Shown piece by piece: positions 6,598 to 36,651 of a stretch of 47,833 nt of DNA. Position 1 is the stretch's first letter; each line of letters starts with the position of its first letter. Under the pieces are notes generated by a model, which was given only the letters and a program-made list of their open reading frames with translations, ran no database searches and was not told where the DNA came from. The translations under genes and the position numbers were made by a program. The DNA is taken from positions 1 to 47,833 of IMG/VR virus record IMGVR_UViG_3300010391_000158. The stretch is one strand, 5' to 3'. The stretch comes from a virus.

Positions 6598-6781
6598 GGC
6601 AACCGGACGAGAACTCGGGCTGTGATTTGAACCTTATTACCACGCTAAGTGCTTGAGAAATGTTGGAGAAATTGGCCAATTTGTTGGCGGCGCGGCTCGT
6701 CTGCTCTTCGCTGATCCGGACATGAACCGGGACATCTCCGCGTCGAGTCGCTCGCTAACTGAGGCGAGCTACAATGAGCTA

Positions 6782-6843
6782 GAGTCGGTGACCGAGCGAC
6801 AGCAAAGCTGTTTAGGCGGGTTCGACTCCCGCCCGACTCTCCA
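6782..6843 (+). tRNA. Truncated, D-arm-less tRNA-like element (Cys-like 3' half)
   Basis: GAGTCGG (6782-6788) pairs with CCGACTC (6833-6839), followed by U73 and an encoded CCA (6841-6843). The T arm is canonical: GCGGG, TTCGACT, CCCGC (6816-6832). Between acceptor and T arm there are only about 27 bases, far too few for D and anticodon arms; instead ACAGC-AAA-GCTGT forms one short hairpin. U73, GCA and TTTAG before the T arm recall tRNA-Cys, but GCA is paired, not in a seven-base loop with U33. It may be a remnant, a tRNA mimic or a processing signal. Confidence 0.45.
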
Positions 6844-10138: not shown

Positions 10139-10351
10139 CTATAGTCTTCTCGCCAACTCGATCTCTTCCTTCGGCACTCTTACGCCTCTCGCTATTCTCC
10201 CGTACACCGATCCGATGAAACCGATCTCGCTCAGTCTCTCCTTCGGTGTCGTCCTCTTCCTCGCGTTGCCTCCCTTGGATCCCCCGAGTTTTCCAAGTGC
10301 AACCGCAGCAGGATTTCGTTTCTCGCTATTTTTCTTTACAGCCAATTCCAA
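10139..10351 (-). CDS. Small basic protein with GKLGGxKGG motif
   Basis: A 70-residue protein. The stretch VALGKLGGSKGGNARKRT, followed by TPKERLSEIGFIG, resembles small basic 'GKLGGKARA' phage and bacterial proteins of unknown role, probably nucleic-acid binding. Its 5' end is overlapped by 16 bases by the 3' end of the HNH gene, suggesting that the HNH gene was inserted against it. Confidence 0.55.
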   Translation of the reverse strand: MELAVKKNSEKRNPAAVALGKLGGSKGGNARKRTTPKERLSEIGFIGSVYGRIARGVRVPKEEIELARRL

Positions 10352-10884
10352 GCCTCCCTTTTGACAATCCTAGCAATGTGAATGTCAGAAACAGAATAAG
10401 CCCTTCCCAATGCCCGCATAGACTCACCTTCAGTGTGACGCTTTCTAATCTCACTCACCAAACTGGAATTGAGTTTGGAAAATCCGTTTGATTCACCACG
10501 TTGTTTGTAGTGTGGATTTCCTTTGGTGTTGTAGAAGTTTTTTGGGACGTTGCCTGGACGTCCTCTTCCTTTTCTATCGCGATCTTTCATGTTGTCTTGG
10601 TGTGTACCTAGCCAAAGGTGACTGGGCCTTATGCAACTTGGATTATCACAGGCGTGTAAAACGTGTTTGCTTTGATCGAACTCGGAGTTATGCAGCATGT
10701 ACGATAGACGGTGCGCGAGGATTCTTTGTTTGCCGCATTTCACAATGCCATAACCTTGAGGTTGTTTTATTCCTGTCCAAATCCAGCAACCTTTAGGCTC
10801 TGATCTTGAGACATGTCTCCAGAAGATATATGAGAGCAATCGCGTATCTATTGCTGGTATCCTAACTGGAGTACTTTTGCTCAT
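10336..10884 (-). CDS. HNH homing endonuclease with C-terminal HTH
   Basis: A 182-residue protein. GCWIWTG, then GYG and AHRLSYML, lead to the HNH core VLHACDNPSCIRPSHLWLGT followed by DNMKDRD-KGR, the classic free-standing phage homing endonuclease (HNH_3, I-HmuI-like) layout with catalytic His present. A C-terminal helix-turn-helix (LVSEIRKRHTEGESMRALGR) gives target recognition. The gene is visibly richer in A+T than its neighbours, a usual sign of a mobile gene. No ribosome site is seen; the predicted promoter places the transcript start at the ATG. Confidence 0.85.
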   Translation of the reverse strand: MSKSTPVRIPAIDTRLLSYIFWRHVSRSEPKGCWIWTGIKQPQGYGIVKCGKQRILAHRLSYMLHNSEFDQSKHVLHACDNPSCIRPSHLWLGTHQDNMKDRDRKGRGRPGNVPKNFYNTKGNPHYKQRGESNGFSKLNSSLVSEIRKRHTEGESMRALGRAYSVSDIHIARIVKREAWNWL

Positions 10885-10942: not shown

Positions 10943-10971
10943 TTGACATTCTCCACACGAAGGATTACAGT
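10943..10971 (+). promoter_or_regulatory. Rightward promoter of the structured RNA region
   Basis: TTGACA (10943-10948), 17-bp spacer, TACAGT (10966-10971): consensus -35 and 4 of 6 at -10 with ideal spacing. Transcription would start near 10978 and enter about 600 bases of gene-free, strongly self-complementary sequence before the gene at 11591. Confidence 0.65.
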
Positions 10972-11053
10972 CGTGTTTGCGCATGAGACGTAAACAAGGA
11001 ACAGGTTTTAGCGAGGGGTCGTTTGATCCTGTTCTAGTTTCGAGCGCGGCGGG

Positions 11054-11126
11054 TGAGGGACCTGAGACAAGCGTTAAGTTGGTTAGCTTTGCGCAATTCA
11101 GCTTTACGTAACTCTCAGGTCCCTCA
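11054..11126 (+). other. Perfect 14-bp stem with a 45-base loop
   Basis: TGAGGGACCTGAGA at 11054-11067 is exactly complementary to 11113-11126. G-U pairs can extend the base. No T tract follows on the plus strand, so it is not an intrinsic terminator. It forms the second domain of the candidate RNA. Confidence 0.75.
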
Positions 11127-11139
11127 TTAAACAAAAAGG

Positions 11140-11296
11140 ATTGCGGCGGCGTGAAGGGACACGCGAGGGAAACTAACGGCCCGGCAGAAGCCCTCACGAA
11201 AGTGTATGGGTGCAAAAGCCTTGATGGCGACGGCCTGGGTGGGTGAACCTCCCCTGCCTCAGACGTGAGAAGCCGGTGTCGAGTCCGGTCCGCAAT
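11140..11296 (+). other. tRNA-like acceptor and T arm enclosing about 125 bases
   Basis: ATTGCGG (11140-11146) and CCGCAAT (11290-11296) form a seven-base acceptor-like stem. Directly before the 3' strand is a T-arm-like hairpin, GCCGG, loop TGTCGAGT, CCGGT (11272-11289). The arrangement imitates the coaxial acceptor and T arms of tRNA or tmRNA, but the enclosed part has GCGTG/CACGC and GAGGG/CCCTC hairpins instead of D and anticodon arms, and no encoded CCA. Confidence 0.45.
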
Positions 11297-11342
11297 TTAG
11301 TTTCAAGAGAGAAAACTATCTGGGCCATCAGGTCCAGGAGCA

Positions 11343-11505
11343 GCTGGCAGAGCGGATTCGAATCCCGTCGTTGGCGGTTGGAGGGCTCGGCACCACGAGT
11401 CAGGGTTAGGAAGTGTATCTTGTCCAGAGCCACTTCCCCAAACACTCAACCTGATTCGGGCTTCTTCTGATGGTCCACGACGGGACTCGAATCCGCTCTG
11501 CCAGC
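11343..11505 (+). repeat. 29-base inverted repeat resembling a fused tRNA D arm and T arm
   Basis: Arms 11343-11371 and 11477-11505 match at 28 of 29 positions. Each arm reads like GCTGGCAGAGCG (a D arm as in class II tRNAs) joined straight to GATTCGAATCCC (a T loop), without an anticodon arm. Inside the 105-base loop, CGAGTCAGG (11396-11404) pairs with CCTGATTCG (11450-11458), and GGAAGTG (11409-11415) with CACTTCC (11431-11437). Confidence 0.75.
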
Positions 11506-11590
11506 GAATGGGGGCGGCTCGGCAGGGTAGCTGGGTCGCCCCCTAAAAAAGTAGAAGCATGATCTGGAACGAACTCCAGGTGGTGAAAAA

Positions 11591-11824
11591 ATGATCTTCG
11601 TCGTCTTGCTTGGATTCGTGACGGGATTCTTGCTCGGCTATTTCGCTGGTGCAGAAGCGCAGAAGAAGCGCCACCAGCATGATTGGGAAAAGTGGGAAAC
11701 GGTATGCTGTATCGCCCGTAGATTCAAATTCGGGGTGATGACGGGAGAACACGAGATCACAAAGCTGGAACGCATCTGCAAGACATGTGGCAACAGAGAA
11801 TGGAAACCTTGGGGTGAAAATTGA
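11591..11824 (+). CDS. Membrane-anchored small protein with CxxC
   Basis: A 77-residue protein after AGGTGG. Residues about 2-22 form a Gly-zipper-like membrane helix (VVLLGFVTGFLLGYFAG); the cytoplasmic part is basic and contains HQHDWEKWETVCC and a later CKTC, a possible zinc site. Its TGA overlaps the TTG start of the VWA gene, so the two are one unit. Confidence 0.6.
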   Translation: MIFVVLLGFVTGFLLGYFAGAEAQKKRHQHDWEKWETVCCIARRFKFGVMTGEHEITKLERICKTCGNREWKPWGEN

Positions 11825-12852
11825 AACAGTACATCGGCTTCGTCAGGGATCACAGTGGCTCCATGGGTTCTCTCCGTAATGGAGCGGCTCAGGACTACAA
11901 CAACAACGTCAACGCCATCAAAGCTGCTTCCGAGCAGCATCAACTCGACACCATCGTCAACACCGTCAAGTGTGGTGTCGGCAGCAGAGGAACAGTCGAA
12001 CGTGAAACTGTCAACTCCACAGTTCACATGCTGAAGCCCCTCACCACCGCTCAGTACGACACAGATGGCTTTTATACTCCGCTCTTCGATTCCGTCGGCG
12101 AGGTCATCGACCTCATGTCTGAGGTCCCGGACTTCGACAGTCCCGACGTTGCCTTCCTCGTTGTCGTCATCACCGACGGCGCAGAGAACTCTTCGCACAA
12201 ATGGAATGGACGCACTCTCGCCAAGCGCATCAGTGAACTGCAGAAGACCGATCGTTGGACATTCACCTTTCGCGTTCCACAAGGCTACTCATACCAGTTG
12301 AGCAGCCTCGGCATCCCCGCGGGGAATATCCTGGAGTGGGAGCAGACAGAGCGTGGTCTTCGCATCTCCAGCGACATCACCGTCAAGGCAGTGGGCAACT
12401 ATTACACTCAGCGGTCACAGGGCGTTCGAAGCTCCTCGTCCTTCTACGCCGACCTCAGCGGTGTCACTTCACGCGATCTCAAACAGAACCTCGCCGACAT
12501 CTCCAAGCAAGTCATCGTCTGGCCGATCTCGAAGTTCTCGAATACCTCAGAGATTCGCACCTTCGTCGAGAGCAAGAACCGTGGTCAGTACCTCAAGGGC
12601 GCTGCTTTCTACCAGCTGACGAAAACGGAAGAAGTCCAGGACTACAAGAAGATCGTCATCCTCGACAAGCTCTCCTCCAAGTTCTACGGCGGTGCCGAGG
12701 CTCGACAGATGCTCAGTCTCCCCAACTTCGGCTACGTCAAGCTGAAGCCAGCTGATCACGATCAGTTCGAGATCTTCATCCAGTCGACGTCGGTCAACCG
12801 CAAGCTCGTCAGCGGGACCAAGCTGGTCTACTGGACTGGAGCGGTGACCTAA
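11821..12852 (+). CDS. von Willebrand factor type A domain protein
   Basis: A 343-residue protein starting at TTG 11821, overlapping the upstream stop by four bases. The MIDAS metal site is complete: DHSGS at residues 10-14, a Thr in FYTPLFD near 86, and VVITDG with Asp119. The VWA domain fills about residues 1-190; the rest (RSSSSFYADLSGVTSRDLKQ, FGYVKLKPADHDQFEIF) is unassigned. VWA proteins mediate metal-dependent protein contacts, and in bacteria they often pair with AAA ATPases or tellurite-type stress proteins; none is adjacent here. Next to it are small membrane proteins. Confidence 0.85.
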   Translation: MKQYIGFVRDHSGSMGSLRNGAAQDYNNNVNAIKAASEQHQLDTIVNTVKCGVGSRGTVERETVNSTVHMLKPLTTAQYDTDGFYTPLFDSVGEVIDLMSEVPDFDSPDVAFLVVVITDGAENSSHKWNGRTLAKRISELQKTDRWTFTFRVPQGYSYQLSSLGIPAGNILEWEQTERGLRISSDITVKAVGNYYTQRSQGVRSSSSFYADLSGVTSRDLKQNLADISKQVIVWPISKFSNTSEIRTFVESKNRGQYLKGAAFYQLTKTEEVQDYKKIVILDKLSSKFYGGAEARQMLSLPNFGYVKLKPADHDQFEIFIQSTSVNRKLVSGTKLVYWTGAVT

Positions 12853-13826: not shown

Positions 13827-13903
13827 CTGTGTATAGCTCAGTCTGGCAGAGCGCTCGGCTTGGGACCGAGAGGCCGGGGGTTCGAGTCCCTCTACACAGA
13901 CCA
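13827..13903 (+). tRNA. tRNA-Pro (UGG)
   Basis: A complete 77-base cloverleaf: acceptor CTGTGTA/TACACAG, D arm GCTC/GAGC, anticodon stem CTCGG/CCGAG with loop CTTGGGA (U33, anticodon TGG, G37), T arm GGGGG/CCCTC with TTCGAGT, A73 and encoded CCA. C1-G72, A73 and G37 fit proline identity. It starts the tRNA pair. Confidence 0.95.
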
Positions 13904-13906
13904 AAT

Positions 13907-13980
13907 CAGGGTCTGGTGTATGGGTGGCATCCGTGTTTTGGAAACATGTGGAAGCAGTTCAACTCTGCTGGCCCTGACCA
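13907..13980 (+). tRNA. Second tRNA with apparent UGG anticodon (tRNA-Pro-like)
   Basis: A complete 74-base cloverleaf three bases after the first: acceptor CAGGGTC/GGCCCTG (one G-U), three-pair D arm GTG/CAT, anticodon stem CGTGT/ACATG with loop TTTGGAA (U33, anticodon TGG, A37), T arm AGCAG/CTGCT with TTCAACT, A73 and CCA. Beyond the anticodon it shares little with its neighbour. A37 instead of G37 is unusual for tRNA-Pro, so its decoding identity is uncertain. Confidence 0.85.
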
Positions 13981-25385: not shown

Positions 25386-25613
25386 TTGGTTACCACCCCA
25401 GCCAACGTCGGTCAATTGTTCCTCTGCGATGAAGGACATATAGATCCAACAGCATTGCAGGAACGTGCGCATAAGCCGTATCAGTGCGCAAAAGTCAATT
25501 GTTTAAGTCACACCCGTCAGGTATCTAAGTATGCCTTACGTGGTGTAGCTCTCAGAAGTAGGATCAACCACGAACGCCTAATCAGATCAGTTTTGTTGGG
25601 CGATCCTCTATGA
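25386..25613 (+). CDS. Small hypothetical protein
   Basis: A 75-residue protein from TTG 25386 after GGGAGGA. It has CDEGHID and CAKVNC, perhaps a loose zinc site, and a basic C-terminal helix (RGVALRSRINHERLIRSV). It overlaps the polymerase start by four bases. Confidence 0.5.
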   Translation: MVTTPANVGQLFLCDEGHIDPTALQERAHKPYQCAKVNCLSHTRQVSKYALRGVALRSRINHERLIRSVLLGDPL

Positions 25614-28600
25614 AGAAACCCGACACTTGTTCGGGTTGCGCGCTCTACTACAAAGGATTCGGTTACGGTCCAGCTGTTGGCCCTGTCAACGCTAAGATCC
25701 TTCTAGTAGGCGAAGCACTCGGCGTACAAGAAGCCATCCTCGGTAAGCCTTTCGTCGGTCAAGCAGGTGCCATGCTTGATCGCATACTGCGTCTCTGCGG
25801 TTTCTCTCGCGATCAATTCCGCATCGACAATACCATTCGCTGTCAGCCACCTAACAACTGGCTATCAGGTGCACCGTGGGAACACGAGGCAGTAGAACAC
25901 TGCTCTCAGTATATCGGTGAGACTCTCAATGAGAAGCACACCGTTGTCATGCCTCTCGGTGCTGTTGCCGCCCGTCGTCTACTCGGTCTAGCCCCAGGTC
26001 GCGGAAAGATGCAAGACCTCCACGGCACAGTCACCAGGGATGCCCAAGACCGCTTCTGGATCGTTCCCACATTCCACCCCTCGTACATCCAGCGTGGAGC
26101 GCACAACATCATCGGTGTTGCCATCCATGATTTCAAGCTCACCGCCGAGATAGCCCTCAAGGGCAGAATACCTGATCCAGGAAAGATCACCGTCGATCCT
26201 TCGATTCAGTGGTTCGGTACCTGGGCAGACGAAGCTTTCCGCTATGCCTCCAAGGTTATCGCATCAGGTGGTATACCTCCCTGGCTCTCCATCGACATCG
26301 AGACTCCGGAGAAGGCCAGAGGCGTAGACGAAGACGAACTAACGATCGGTAAGTCCTCTGTCATCGACCTTGGTGATCTACCCACCCTTGGCGACATAGA
26401 GAAGCCTAAAGCTCTGAAGGACAAGCGTAACGTCATCCTTCGGGTCAACTTCGCCTACGACAAGGACCACGGTATCACCGTCCCGTTCTATGGCGGCTAC
26501 ACTGACATCATCCGCCAACTCTGTGCTACACCTCTCTTCTCCAAAGCCTTCTGGAACATTGCCTATGACCGTCCGCGGCTAGAGATCAACGAGTGTCCTG
26601 TCGGTGAACCAGCGCACGACTTCATGGATGCCTGGCACATGCTGCAGTCCGACGTCCCACGTGGTCTAGGCTTCGTAGCGCCATTCTATAGTCAGTGGGG
26701 ACCATGGAAGCACCTCTCTGACGAGAAGCCAGGTGAGTACGCCGCAATCGACGCCATTCAGACTACCCGAATCGCATACGGTGTCGAAGCAGATCTAAAG
26801 AAGCTCGGCATGTGGGATACCTACTATCGCCACATGTACAAACTGGACGTTCTCGCTCTCAAGCCCGCTGAGGAAGTCGGACTCCTTGTTGATCCAGGAG
26901 ACAGAGAGAAAGAAGAAGGTGGTCTGTCCGGCTTCAGGAAGCTCCTCACCGACACGAAGGAAGAGATCGTAGAGAAGATCCGTACTCACGTCCCTGAAAT
27001 TCTCCGTCCTATAGAGAAGGTCTACAAAACCCGTCGTGCTATCACTGACGAGAACGATCAACTCCTCCCAGAACTAGCTCCCAGACTGGAAGAGTTCAAC
27101 GAAACGGAAATCCAGAATCAGTGTTCCAAGTGTGAAAAAATCGGAGTCCGAGCGGGGCATGCATCTGTCAAGAAGTGTTTCGGTGCAACTATCACCATGC
27201 TAGAAGTAGACGTCCCACGCTGGCGTCTGTGGGGCGAGTTCAATCCATCCTCTGCTCAACAGATGCTCGTCTACATCAAGCACAAGGGGCATGCTCCAGG
27301 TAAGAACAAGAAGACGAAAGCTGACTCATCTGACGCTGCGGCTCTAGAAGCACTAGCGAAGAGACACAAGAGCGACCCGGTCTACCCTCTCTGCCTCGAC
27401 CTCCGCAAAGTCGACAAGATGAAGGGCACCTACGCAGACGGGATGCTCAAGCGTATGGACGAGAACAACCGCGTTCACACTACCTTCACGCACAAGCCAT
27501 CGACTCTTCGTCTCTCTTCCGGTGATCCCAACCTCCAGAACCTGGTAAAGCGTGGTGACGATGAAACTGCCTATGCCAAGAAGTTCCGTGAATGTGTCAT
27601 CGCTGGTCCTGGCAATGTCCTCATCGAAGCCGACTACGCTGGTATCGAGGCCGTTGAGGTAGGCTGGTTCTCCGGCGATCCGAGCTACATTCGCCTGGCC
27701 ACGATCGGTGTGCACTCCTTCCTCTGTTCGCATCTTCTGAACAACCCAGCGGATCTATCCTGGGATGACCAGAAGCTCGGTGAGTTCCTGTCTCAGTTCA
27801 AGAAGTCGAAGGATCCCAAGGTCAAGGAACTCTACGCACGATCAAAGCGCTGCGTCCATGGGTGCCTAGGCCCGGATCATGAAGTACTAACTCCCATGGG
27901 TTGGGTACGGTTAGATCAATATTCAGAAGGTACACCAGTTGCTCAATGGGATGCAGGTAAATTGTCCTTTGTTATTCCAAGCAAATTAACTAGAGTACCC
28001 AACCAAAATCCGAACATGCTAAAACTGCATGGTCGTAGCCTGTCTGCAGTAATGACGTTGGACCACAGACTCCCATTCAAATACTCTTATGAAGATGCCT
28101 GGAGAGAGGTAACAGCATCCACGCTTCCAAATCAAGGCCGGATACCAACAAGTGGAGTATTAGAAGGTATAGAGGAGATTGATCATGATTTTCTTCGTCT
28201 AGTAGTGGCGACACAAGCAGACGCAGCTATTGGCGGCGATGGCCGTTTTGGAATCGTATTTCATCTTACCAAGAGCCGAAAGATTACTAGGCTTGAAGAG
28301 ATATTGGGAAGATTACACATAGGATACAGCAAAGTTTCTTGTGCATGCCACGATGCTGGTGTCAGGATTCGTATCGGCACGGAATGTGCCAACTTGGTGC
28401 TAGCTTGGTTGGATGGTAAAGAAAAGACATTCAATCTCTCCGCATTTCTTCGTCTTAGTAAGACTTGCAGAGAAGTTGTGATTGAGGAGCTGCCTTTGTG
28501 GGATGGCCACAGGGTGGAGAAAAAACGTTATGTTTACTTTACTACCAATAGGAGACAAGCCGATATAGTACAAACGCTAGCCACAACCATTGGTAAGCAA

Positions 28601-29482
28601 GCACTGCTTAGAATTGCGATAAAGGGCGAAGGACACTACGGAGATAAAGATTGTTACAGTGTATCCATGAATGTGCGTAAAGGAGCTGCCGTAGACCGTC
28701 TTGATAGATCGGAAATTCCATATACCGGTTTTGTTTATTGTCTAACAGTCCCATCCTCATACTTCATGATCAAGCACGATGATCGTATCTCTATCACAGG
28801 AAACACCAACTATGGAATGACGCCTCCAGGCATGCACGCCAACTATCCTGACACCTTCAAGACGGTGAAAGATGCTTCGAAGGTCCAGGACCTATACATG
28901 GCCGTCTGCCCCAAGCTTCACGAGTGGCAGAAGTCTCTCATCCAACGCGCTCATCGCTACGGCTACCTAGGCGGCGACGAGCACCCATTCAAGTACCGTC
29001 ATTGGTTCTGGAATGTGATCAACCACAAGCGTATCACTAGACCTCAATTCCTAGCTGCACGGCGAAACGGTACCCAAGTCATAGAAAACGAATCAGGCTA
29101 CTGGTCCGTACAGTACGGTGAAGACGCCAAACGTGCGATCGCCTTCTTCCCTCAGTCCACCGCTGGAGGCATTCTCAAAGAGACCATGCTTCATCTCTTC
29201 GACCCCGAGATTCCCGACACTTACATCGGTGACGTATACTACGGCAGGACCCCTCTCCGGATGCCGATTCATGACTCACTCGTCCTTGAGGTCCCATCTG
29301 CGAGGGCAGATTTCGTGCTCGAACGTCTCACCAAAGTGATGTCCACTCCGGTGAAGCAGCAACCGTGTCCTGAATCCTGGGGCATAGGCCAGACCGATGG
29401 CATCAAGATCGGCATCGAAGTCGAGATGGGTTCCAACTGGGCAGAGATGCGCGCTGTCGACATCAAGCAGTATGGAGGGTAG
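25610..29482 (+). CDS. Uracil-DNA glycosylase (family 4)-DNA polymerase I fusion, interrupted by an intein
   Basis: A 1290-residue precursor. Residues 1-190: family 4 UDG with Fe-S cysteines C7, C10, C78, C98, GEALG...GKPFVGQAG (34-53) and HPSY (156). Residues 225-395: DEDDy proofreading exonuclease (D229/E231, D320, Y377/D381). A Cys/His cluster (C505, C508, H517, C523) follows. Residues 590-1290: family A polymerase with motif A DYAGIE (675-680), motif B split by an intein (752-1065), and motif C MPIHDS (H1221, D1222). After splicing the enzyme is 976 residues. It should replicate DNA and excise or sense uracil. No 5'-3' exonuclease domain is present. Confidence 0.95.
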   Translation: MKKPDTCSGCALYYKGFGYGPAVGPVNAKILLVGEALGVQEAILGKPFVGQAGAMLDRILRLCGFSRDQFRIDNTIRCQPPNNWLSGAPWEHEAVEHCSQYIGETLNEKHTVVMPLGAVAARRLLGLAPGRGKMQDLHGTVTRDAQDRFWIVPTFHPSYIQRGAHNIIGVAIHDFKLTAEIALKGRIPDPGKITVDPSIQWFGTWADEAFRYASKVIASGGIPPWLSIDIETPEKARGVDEDELTIGKSSVIDLGDLPTLGDIEKPKALKDKRNVILRVNFAYDKDHGITVPFYGGYTDIIRQLCATPLFSKAFWNIAYDRPRLEINECPVGEPAHDFMDAWHMLQSDVPRGLGFVAPFYSQWGPWKHLSDEKPGEYAAIDAIQTTRIAYGVEADLKKLGMWDTYYRHMYKLDVLALKPAEEVGLLVDPGDREKEEGGLSGFRKLLTDTKEEIVEKIRTHVPEILRPIEKVYKTRRAITDENDQLLPELAPRLEEFNETEIQNQCSKCEKIGVRAGHASVKKCFGATITMLEVDVPRWRLWGEFNPSSAQQMLVYIKHKGHAPGKNKKTKADSSDAAALEALAKRHKSDPVYPLCLDLRKVDKMKGTYADGMLKRMDENNRVHTTFTHKPSTLRLSSGDPNLQNLVKRGDDETAYAKKFRECVIAGPGNVLIEADYAGIEAVEVGWFSGDPSYIRLATIGVHSFLCSHLLNNPADLSWDDQKLGEFLSQFKKSKDPKVKELYARSKRCVHGCLGPDHEVLTPMGWVRLDQYSEGTPVAQWDAGKLSFVIPSKLTRVPNQNPNMLKLHGRSLSAVMTLDHRLPFKYSYEDAWREVTASTLPNQGRIPTSGVLEGIEEIDHDFLRLVVATQADAAIGGDGRFGIVFHLTKSRKITRLEEILGRLHIGYSKVSCACHDAGVRIRIGTECANLVLAWLDGKEKTFNLSAFLRLSKTCREVVIEELPLWDGHRVEKKRYVYFTTNRRQADIVQTLATTIGKQALLRIAIKGEGHYGDKDCYSVSMNVRKGAAVDRLDRSEIPYTGFVYCLTVPSSYFMIKHDDRISITGNTNYGMTPPGMHANYPDTFKTVKDASKVQDLYMAVCPKLHEWQKSLIQRAHRYGYLGGDEHPFKYRHWFWNVINHKRITRPQFLAARRNGTQVIENESGYWSVQYGEDAKRAIAFFPQSTAGGILKETMLHLFDPEIPDTYIGDVYYGRTPLRMPIHDSLVLEVPSARADFVLERLTKVMSTPVKQQPCPESWGIGQTDGIKIGIEVEMGSNWAEMRAVDIKQYGG
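27863..28804 (+). mobile_element. Intein in polymerase motif B, with degenerate LAGLIDADG domain
   Basis: A 314-residue in-frame insertion. It begins CLGPDHEVLTPMGWV (block A with Cys1) and ends RISITGN followed by Thr as the +1 residue. The penultimate residue is Gly, not the usual His. A middle section with LVVATQADAAIGGDGRFG and, 90 residues on, ELPLWDG resembles the two DOD/LAGLIDADG motifs; the first lacks the usual Gly-rich spelling, so homing activity is uncertain. Codon use is clearly richer in A+T than the flanks. Removing it joins VHG to TNYGM and restores the O-helix motif. Confidence 0.9.
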
Positions 29483-35680: not shown

Positions 35681-36592
35681 CTACTTGATCGCAGCATGGA
35701 TCGCTGGGAATCCGTTGGCGATCACCTTCAGCGCACCGTCCGCCTTCCTGATACCGTAGTTGTCTAACGGCTCATTCGGGTCAGGGCCGTCATTGATCTG
35801 ATACCAGGTAATCGCGGAGACATTCGTTTCTTTGGCCCACCAGCCGTATTCCCAGGCAGCGAATTGAAGCTGCTCGGCCTCTCCAACGCGGAAGTTCTCC
35901 TTGGTGAAACAGAGTGGAAACGGCTTACTCCGACGTTGAGCTTGGCTATAACCGGTCTCAGTAAGCCAGAATTCACGCTGGACAGCTCCGTCACTCACAG
36001 CCAGGACAAAGCTCGCAAACTCGTCTCCGCGGTCCTTGTAGGGCTTGTGTGTCCCATGGTGATTACCTGCAGGGTATCTATGGAGGGACACGGCGTAATC
36101 CGAAGCCTTCTTCTTGATAGGTATAAACAATCTCCGAGCATAACCCTGCTCAGTCGGCCCCAGGTTGGATACCGATGGAGTCAGAATCGTGATGTTCTTT
36201 GCCCACTTTCTGATGAGCGGAACGGCCTTACAGAACGTCTCACCAAGCTCTTCTGGATTCGCACGCCACATATCACTGAAGATGTTTGGCTCGTTGCAGA
36301 ACTCCAGCGCTACTCCAGGCCGATCGAACCCATACTCTGCAACCATGTTGGCCACCGTTTCGGTGAAGTCCAACATGTCATTGATATCAGGGTTGTCCTC
36401 CTCGAAAGGCAGGAGGAAGAGGAGAGAAGCTAGTTCCGGAACCTGTTGATAGGTCTGCAGCACCATCCTAATGTGAGACCAGTCGTGCTTCATTCTGATG
36501 TCCTGCCGAGTTCCATCGAACCCAAGCGAAGACACCCAACGCAGCACACCTGCATCAGGACTGTCGATACTGCAATTCAGATAGCTTCTCAT
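35681..36592 (-). CDS. Glycoside hydrolase, TIM-barrel type (clan GH-A-like)
   Basis: A 303-residue protein. VALEFCNEPNIF holds the acid/base Glu101 after Asn, and EFWLTETGYS the nucleophile Glu212, spaced as in clan GH-A families (GH5, GH39, GH53-like). AITWYQINDGP supplies the aromatic end of the barrel. No signal peptide. Located just before lysis and tail genes, it probably cuts a host surface polysaccharide or acts in lysis. Exact family and substrate cannot be read. Confidence 0.75.
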   Translation of the reverse strand: MRSYLNCSIDSPDAGVLRWVSSLGFDGTRQDIRMKHDWSHIRMVLQTYQQVPELASLLFLLPFEEDNPDINDMLDFTETVANMVAEYGFDRPGVALEFCNEPNIFSDMWRANPEELGETFCKAVPLIRKWAKNITILTPSVSNLGPTEQGYARRLFIPIKKKASDYAVSLHRYPAGNHHGTHKPYKDRGDEFASFVLAVSDGAVQREFWLTETGYSQAQRRSKPFPLCFTKENFRVGEAEQLQFAAWEYGWWAKETNVSAITWYQINDGPDPNEPLDNYGIRKADGALKVIANGFPAIHAAIK

Positions 36593-36651
36593 CCCTCTTC
36601 CACCGTTACTGTTCCTACGCTTGGTAGGTCAGCTAAGTCTTGTTTTCGACC

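What the first reader, a model, noticed from the sequence alone, without database searches (positions are those of the whole stretch)
10978..11560. Candidate large ornate RNA between divergent promoters
About 700 bp carry no credible gene yet hold at least five long complementary arm pairs, including a perfect 14-bp stem, a 28-of-29-base inverted repeat and two tRNA-like arm arrangements, behind a near-consensus promoter. Size, complexity and position near tRNA genes recall the phage GOLLD and ROOL RNA classes, but I cannot assign it to either. It may be a new class or a long regulatory leader of the VWA operon.
Basis: partly seen in the sequence, partly recalled or inferred. Interest (0 to 1): 0.78.

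Follow-up and report, generated by a model that had tools for sequence, protein, structure and literature searches.

The report
Orphan structured phage RNA beside vWA-gene operon
A 570-base stretch of a phage genome that codes for no protein looks like a large, elaborately folded RNA with tRNA-like pieces; it has no known relatives, and it sits next to a gene whose relatives in other phages often lie beside tRNA arrays and sometimes near the giant GOLLD RNA.

Summary
Window 10978-11552 has no coding signal and folds far better than chance on the + strand (-281 kcal/mol, z about -10 to -11). It contains the strongest hairpin of the window and begins where a near-consensus promoter (TTGACA-17-TACAGT) would start transcription. 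Imperfect pairs in its hairpins favour G.U over A.C (12:1, against 50:50 elsewhere in the window), so RNA rather than DNA was probably selected, although two other scoring schemes gave weaker 11:4 and 15:7. T-arm-like motifs are about ten-fold over-represented. It is not GOLLD, ROOL or any other Rfam family. No homologue was found in phage, plasmid or viral-contig collections, so covariation cannot be tested. New here: relatives of the downstream vWA gene often lie in tRNA arrays, and 6 of 50 such phage records carry a genuine GOLLD, in two of them about 2 kb upstream of the vWA gene on the same strand. The window RNA thus occupies a GOLLD-like neighbourhood but differs in sequence and texture (long near-perfect hairpins). 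Most likely it is an orphan structured phage ncRNA, transcribed as the 5' part of the vWA operon. A cis-acting leader is the main rival. Transcription is not shown.

The parts
10943..10971 (+). Sigma-70-like promoter TTGACA-17-TACAGT; the start expected near 10978 coincides with the first base of the structured region
   Evidence: consensus match only, no transcript data
10978..11048 (+). Domain A: 5' hairpin, 26 pairs including 6 G.U; -29.0 kcal/mol on + against -18.0 on -
11052..11128 (+). Domain B: hairpin with a perfect 14-bp core (11054-11067/11113-11126); apical loop 11083-11097 contains the 8-nt palindrome UUGCGCAA (11089-11096)
   Evidence: palindrome read from the sequence
11139..11298 (+). 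Domain C: tRNA/tmRNA-like topology: 7-bp acceptor-like helix (11140-11146/11290-11296), 2-nt linker, 5-bp D-arm-like hairpin (11149-11164), ~107-nt insert with a GAAA-capped hairpin, T-arm-like 5-bp stem with 8-nt loop UGUCGAGU (11272-11289)
   Evidence: plus manual inspection; for the T-arm motif; folding energy not unusual (z -0.49); ARAGORN does not call a tRNA or tmRNA
11320..11337 (+). Small 7-bp hairpin between domains C and D
11343..11505 (+). Domain D: long hairpin, about 66 pairs; 28-of-29 inverted arms carry fused D-arm-like (CUGGCAGAGCGG) and T-arm-like (AUUCGAAUCCCGUCG) sequence; strongest hairpin of the window
11510..11543 (+). Domain E: 14-bp hairpin (3 G.U) followed by UAAAAAAG, so not an intrinsic terminator
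   Evidence: not listed among terminators
11591..11824 (+). 77-aa ORF directly downstream; overlaps the vWA start by 4 bp
   Evidence: codon score +0.19; no family; no relative found
11821..12852 (+). vWA-fold protein, 343 aa (phrog_26613), the marker used to find related phages
   Evidence: AlphaFold2 model pLDDT 89.9, Foldseek matches to vWA/I domains

Best explanation
The + strand from about 10978 to 11550 encodes a structured, non-coding phage RNA. Shown from sequence: no coding signal, extreme folding on the + strand, a string of hairpins with a tRNA-like domain in the middle, T-arm-like motifs, and strand-asymmetric G.U pairing. Inferred: transcription starts at the TTGACA promoter, the RNA forms the 5' part of the transcript of the 77-aa/vWA operon, and it is cut from that transcript or persists as a structured RNA by RNase processing at the hairpins. 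Inferred function: it acts in trans during infection in the kind of role GOLLD has in tRNA-array phages (as a structural or scaffold RNA), with its T-arm and D-arm mimicry engaging tRNA-handling factors and its palindromic loop allowing self-association. It is not homologous to GOLLD at detectable level.
For: Fold z -11.2 on + against -7.9 on -; strongest tile of 16,924; no coding signal; hairpins found with a strand-neutral score have 12 G.U to 1 A.C (p 0.003) against 50:50 in the rest of the window; T-arm motif 7 against 0.65 expected; the promoter is placed so that the start falls on the first paired base; relatives of the adjacent vWA gene lie in tRNA arrays and 6 of 50 such records carry genuine GOLLD, two of them about 2 kb upstream of the vWA gene on the same strand (with contig ranges), one with a promoter-like site in front and a tRNA-Pro right behind it.
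Against: No homologue was found, so no covariation. No transcript evidence. No terminator behind the last hairpin. The G.U excess depends on the scoring scheme (11:4, p 0.12, and 15:7, p 0.13, in two other schemes). Verified GOLLDs fold with z of only -0.8 to -3.4 and a different texture, so long near-perfect hairpins are not typical of that kind of RNA. Domain C alone is not unusually stable.
Confidence: 0.48

Rival explanations
1. Cis-acting leader: a ~610-nt structured 5' UTR that controls the 77-aa/vWA operon (for example RNase III processing, mRNA stability or translation), with no life of its own.
For: No U-tract follows domain E, so transcription should read into the gene at 11591; the 77-aa ORF starts 48 nt after domain E and overlaps the vWA start; the RNA and the operon share one promoter. 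OLE-size leaders are rare, but phage leaders with RNase III hairpins are well known (general knowledge).
Against: Size and the six-domain layout exceed usual leaders; no sign of an anti-terminator/terminator pair or of an SD-masking helix in the MFE; no Rfam riboswitch or leader match. vWA relatives up to 61% identical lack it: no nucleotide match in the fetched loci or in the 41 records searched, so the vWA gene does not need it.
Confidence: 0.27
2. DNA element: a cluster of inverted repeats at a divergent gene junction acting as a replication origin, recombination site or protein-binding site.
For: It lies between divergent genes (HNH on -, vWA operon on +); arms of domain D contain the 12-bp palindrome GGATTCGAATCC, the kind of T-loop sequence used by integrases (general knowledge); the - strand also folds well (z -7.9).
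Against: Strand-asymmetric G.U pairing; all domains are more stable on +; no direct repeats or iterons; no clear GC-skew turn at the locus; no integrase identified among the window proteins searched.
Confidence: 0.1
3. Debris of a tRNA array: rearranged tRNA fragments, including an inverted duplication of a D-arm/T-arm fusion, with no present function.
For: Related phages have large tRNA arrays here; the domain D arms match tRNA T-arms of relatives at 18-22 nt and share CTGGCAGAGCG with the phage's own tRNA-Pro; odd tRNA-like genes occur elsewhere in the window.
Against: Decay would not leave four consecutive near-perfect hairpins with G.U bias; phage genomes rarely keep 600 bp of inert sequence.
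Confidence: 0.1

Closest known systems
GOLLD RNA (RF02032)
   Same: Large phage ncRNA near tRNA genes; in vWA-bearing relatives a genuine GOLLD lies in the same neighbourhood, upstream of tRNA and vWA genes on the same strand; it may contain tRNA in its linker (PMC12286853; L234 has a tRNA match inside the GOLLD match).
   Different: No match to the model up to E 10; lacks the repeated CUCGCAAGG hairpin loops seen in all six GOLLDs; much more stable, with long near-perfect hairpins (z -10 against -0.8 to -3.4).
ROOL RNA (RF03087)
   Same: About 570-600 nt, phage-borne, near tRNA islands (PMC12286853).
   Different: No match up to E 10, and none in 50 vWA-bearing records (no positive control rang).
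YrlA / bacterial Y RNA with Rsr (Ro60)
   Same: ncRNA with a tRNA-like module made of D, T and acceptor arms, encoded near a protein with a vWA domain (PMC8394870 for YrlA; the vWA part of Ro60 from general knowledge).
   Different: YrlA is 90-150 nt; no Rfam match; the window protein has a vWA fold but no TROVE domain.
tmRNA and intron-bearing tRNA
   Same: Domain C has a 7-bp acceptor-like helix, 2-nt linker, D-arm-like hairpin and abutting T-arm-like hairpin around a ~107-nt insert.
   Different: ARAGORN and Rfam find neither tRNA nor tmRNA; no encoded CCA; T-loop of 8 nt; no G-U at the third acceptor pair.

Membership tests
GOLLD (RF02032) | Match to the covariance model of the conserved 3' region | tested here: not met
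   none up to E 10; the same model finds six genuine GOLLDs at 188-219 bits in relatives, so the search works
GOLLD (RF02032) | Phage or prophage location near tRNA genes | tested here: met
   virus record; tRNA-Pro x2 at 2.3 kb; vWA relatives in tRNA arrays
GOLLD (RF02032) | Homo-multimeric cage, expression during lysis | not testable with these tools
   needs cryo-EM and infection RNA-seq
ROOL (RF03087) | Match to the covariance model | tested here: not met
   no positive control rang, so the negative rests on standard cmscan
Y RNA / YrlA with Ro60 | Partner protein with TROVE domain | tested here: not met
   Pfam finds no TROVE at E 1; structure matches are vWA/I domains, no Ro60 among the 50 listed
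Y RNA / YrlA with Ro60 | tRNA-like module with D-arm, T-arm and acceptor but no anticodon arm | tested here: inconclusive
   T-arm-like motifs are enriched and the domain D arms fuse D-arm-like and T-arm-like sequence, but they are paired with each other in the MFE
tmRNA | ARAGORN or Rfam tmRNA detection; G-U at the third acceptor pair | tested here: not met
   acceptor ATTGCGG/CCGCAAT has no G-U
Structured ncRNA in general | Compensatory base changes in homologues | tested here: inconclusive
   no homologue found

The most novel reading that the evidence does not exclude
A new class of large phage RNA, unrelated to GOLLD and ROOL, that takes their place beside the vWA gene and carries tRNA-elbow (D-arm plus T-arm) mimicry to bind tRNA-handling proteins or defence enzymes.
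Probability: 0.25. Interest if true: 0.75.

Novelty: new variant of a known kind. Interest (0 to 1): 0.5.

Why it matters
Very few large structured phage RNAs are known, and the roles of GOLLD and ROOL are unsolved. A second, unrelated RNA in the same vWA/tRNA neighbourhood would suggest that the site selects for a large structured RNA whatever its sequence, and would point to the vWA protein (phrog_26613) as a candidate partner or functional link that can be tested directly.

Tried and rejected
Rfam at gathering score and at E up to 10: only microRNA and lncRNA noise. BLASTn in phages and plasmids: nothing beyond a 22-nt chance match. Exact seeds in IMG/VR: a 20-mer gave 0, 15-mers gave 15 and 113 stretches, none alike beyond the seed. 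Exact seeds in GTDB genomes: 0 for a 20-mer; one 21-nt match lies in ORFs of a deltaproteobacterial contig with no other shared DNA or protein, so taken as chance. Single-sequence covariance model of domain C over 79 sources and 50 whole records: two weak matches (19.4 bits in L003, 16.7 in L098), both judged chance because they fail most helices or follow the seed. Neighbour genes as anchors: 77-aa ORF, polymerase and the 953-aa protein found no relatives; the vWA gene found 80 loci, none with a similar RNA. tRNA with intron or tmRNA at relaxed thresholds: only unconvincing folds. A first version of the strand-neutral hairpin score was too lenient and is not used; an earlier count on arms taken from the + fold (21:6, p 0.006) is biased towards G.U and is not relied on. 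Ro60/Y RNA: rejected as membership because no TROVE domain was found. A profile of the vWA family against PDB sequences found nothing useful.

Full report
WHAT IS THERE. The window is a 47,833-bp linear IMG/VR virus record. Between an HNH endonuclease gene on the - strand (10336-10884) and a 77-aa ORF on the + strand (11591-11824) lie about 700 bp with no coding signal: the ORFs there score -0.03 to -0.13 for codon usage, against +0.19 to +0.24 for the 77-aa, vWA and NDK genes downstream. The HNH gene scores about 0, as a recently acquired gene might.

IS IT MORE THAN CHANCE. The + strand of 10978-11552 folds at -281.3 kcal/mol, z -11.2, with none of 100 shuffles as good; a second run gave -9.6. 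The - strand gives z -7.9 and -7.0. The 200-nt tile at 11301(+) is the most extreme of 16,924 tiles from the window and about 80 viral loci. The signal comes from the hairpins A, B, D and E; the middle domain C is not unusually stable (z -0.49).

RNA OR DNA. Inverted repeats would also give good folds if the DNA were the selected molecule. Hairpins found with a score that treats G.T and A.C juxtapositions alike show 12 G.U and 1 A.C (p 0.003); 30 hairpins from the rest of the window show 50 and 50. Two other scoring schemes give 11:4 and 15:7 (p 0.12, 0.13), so the direction is stable but the strength is not. All six domains are more stable on + than on -. I read this as support, not proof, for + strand RNA.

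ANATOMY. A promoter-like TTGACA-17-TACAGT (10943-10971) puts the start at about 10978, the first paired base. Domain A (10978-11048) is a 26-pair hairpin. Domain B (11052-11128) has a perfect 14-bp core and an apical loop with the 8-nt palindrome UUGCGCAA, which could allow kissing self-association (inference; such a palindrome has roughly a 3% chance in a loop of that size). Domain C (11139-11298) has tRNA-like topology: a 7-bp acceptor-like helix, a 2-nt linker, a 5-bp hairpin, a ~107-nt insert, and a T-arm-like hairpin abutting the acceptor. ARAGORN does not accept it as a tRNA or tmRNA even at relaxed thresholds. Domain D (11343-11505) is a ~66-pair hairpin whose 29-nt arms (28 complementary) read like a D-arm fused to a T-arm; the arms match T-arms of tRNA genes in related phages (four of the matched sites lie in tRNAs called) and share CTGGCAGAGCG with the phage's own tRNA-Pro. 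Domain E (11510-11543) is a 14-bp hairpin followed by UAAAAAAG, so it is not an intrinsic terminator. The T-arm motif GGNNTCGANTCC occurs 7 times in the window against 0.65 expected, 5 of them here; because domain D holds a palindrome and its inverted mate, these are two independent sites.

RELATIVES. No nucleotide relative was found in phage or plasmid records, by exact seeds in IMG/VR or GTDB, in loci anchored on the vWA gene, in 41 and 50 whole records of such phages, or with a covariance model of domain C. The covariation test is therefore impossible with the data at hand, and this is the largest gap.

THE NEIGHBOURHOOD. The vWA gene (11821-12852, phrog_26613) has many relatives: 80 IMG/VR loci and Caulobacter phage Cr30 at 51%. 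Of 71 non-duplicate loci, 43 have tRNAs in the fetched flank and 23 have one within 1 kb of the vWA gene. Searching 50 vWA-bearing records with the GOLLD model found six genuine GOLLDs at 188-219 bits. Two lie about 2.0 and 2.3 kb upstream of the vWA gene on the same strand (G033, G018; positions), three lie 8-12 kb downstream and one is far away. In L048 the GOLLD is preceded by TTGACT-type promoter-like sequence and followed at once by a tRNA-Pro(TGG) gene. The window RNA thus sits in the same kind of place. I have no base rate for GOLLD in phages of similar size without the vWA gene, so the association is an observation, not a test.

WHAT IT IS NOT. The GOLLD and ROOL models do not match the window at E up to 10. 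For GOLLD the search is controlled by the six positives; for ROOL no positive control rang. The six GOLLDs have z of only -0.8 to -3.4 and repeated CUCGCAAGG loops, so the window RNA differs in texture as well as in sequence. The vWA protein has a vWA/I-domain fold and no TROVE domain, so this is not a Ro60/Y RNA pair by definition, although the combination of a tRNA-like RNA and a vWA protein recalls it (PMC8394870).

MECHANISM. Most likely the RNA is transcribed from 10978 as the 5' part of the 77-aa/vWA transcript and persists or is cut out as a structured RNA acting in trans, in the manner proposed for GOLLD (PMC12286853: encapsulation of tRNAs, ribosomes or other factors); its T-arm mimicry may engage tRNA-handling proteins. 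Only the sequence features are shown; transcription, processing and trans action are inferred. The main rival is a cis-acting leader, favoured by the missing terminator. DNA-element and decayed-array readings are less likely.

VERDICT. Real, unusual and unassigned; most likely a new orphan of the large-phage-RNA kind. Without homologues or transcripts the claim of a new class is premature.

Noticed in passing
L231-L236; records G033, G042, G018, G012, G032, G004: Six IMG/VR phage records that carry the phrog_26613 vWA gene also encode genuine GOLLD RNA (188-219 bits), two of them about 2 kb upstream of the vWA gene on the same strand; in L234 a tRNA match lies inside the GOLLD match.
   Followed up: partly
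window 6745-6843 (+): Unannotated tRNA-like gene with a perfect T-arm (GGCGGGTTCGACTCCCGCC) and a 3' CCA; ARAGORN calls it only at an 80% threshold (tRNA-Leu/Ser); an alternative 61-nt reading from 6783 (GAGTCGG...CCGACTCTCCA) lacks arms.
   Followed up: partly
window 13827-13980; L016 6451-6615; L221 975-1163: Pairs of neighbouring tRNA-Pro(TGG) genes recur in this phage and in several vWA relatives (L016, L039, L044, L071 have two); the second copy in the window has an odd sequence.
   Followed up: no
L006 5821-5938: tRNA-like sequence directly upstream of the vWA gene, with acceptor GTCGC/GCGAC, T-arm GGTGCAAATCC and terminal CCA around a long insert; not called by ARAGORN.
   Followed up: no
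L012 1475-1657 (Caulobacter phage Cr30): Hairpin with a long near-perfect closing stem (CATATTGGTTAGGACATGG / CCATGTCCTAACCAATATG) in a gap near tRNA-Gly and tRNA-Asn, upstream of the vWA gene; possible structured RNA.
   Followed up: no
window 36401-36600 (-): Second-strongest folding tile of the window (z -4.3 on the - strand), inside a - strand gene region.
   Followed up: no
window 25610-29482 (+): 1290-aa protein matching phage DNA polymerase over residues 27-691 and PhoH/primase-polymerase-type proteins over 749-1087, an unusual fusion or readthrough arrangement.
   Followed up: no
L026 2779-2888: Match exactly at the gathering score to Rhizobiales sRNA Atu_At1 in a vWA-bearing phage record of 368 kb.
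   Followed up: no
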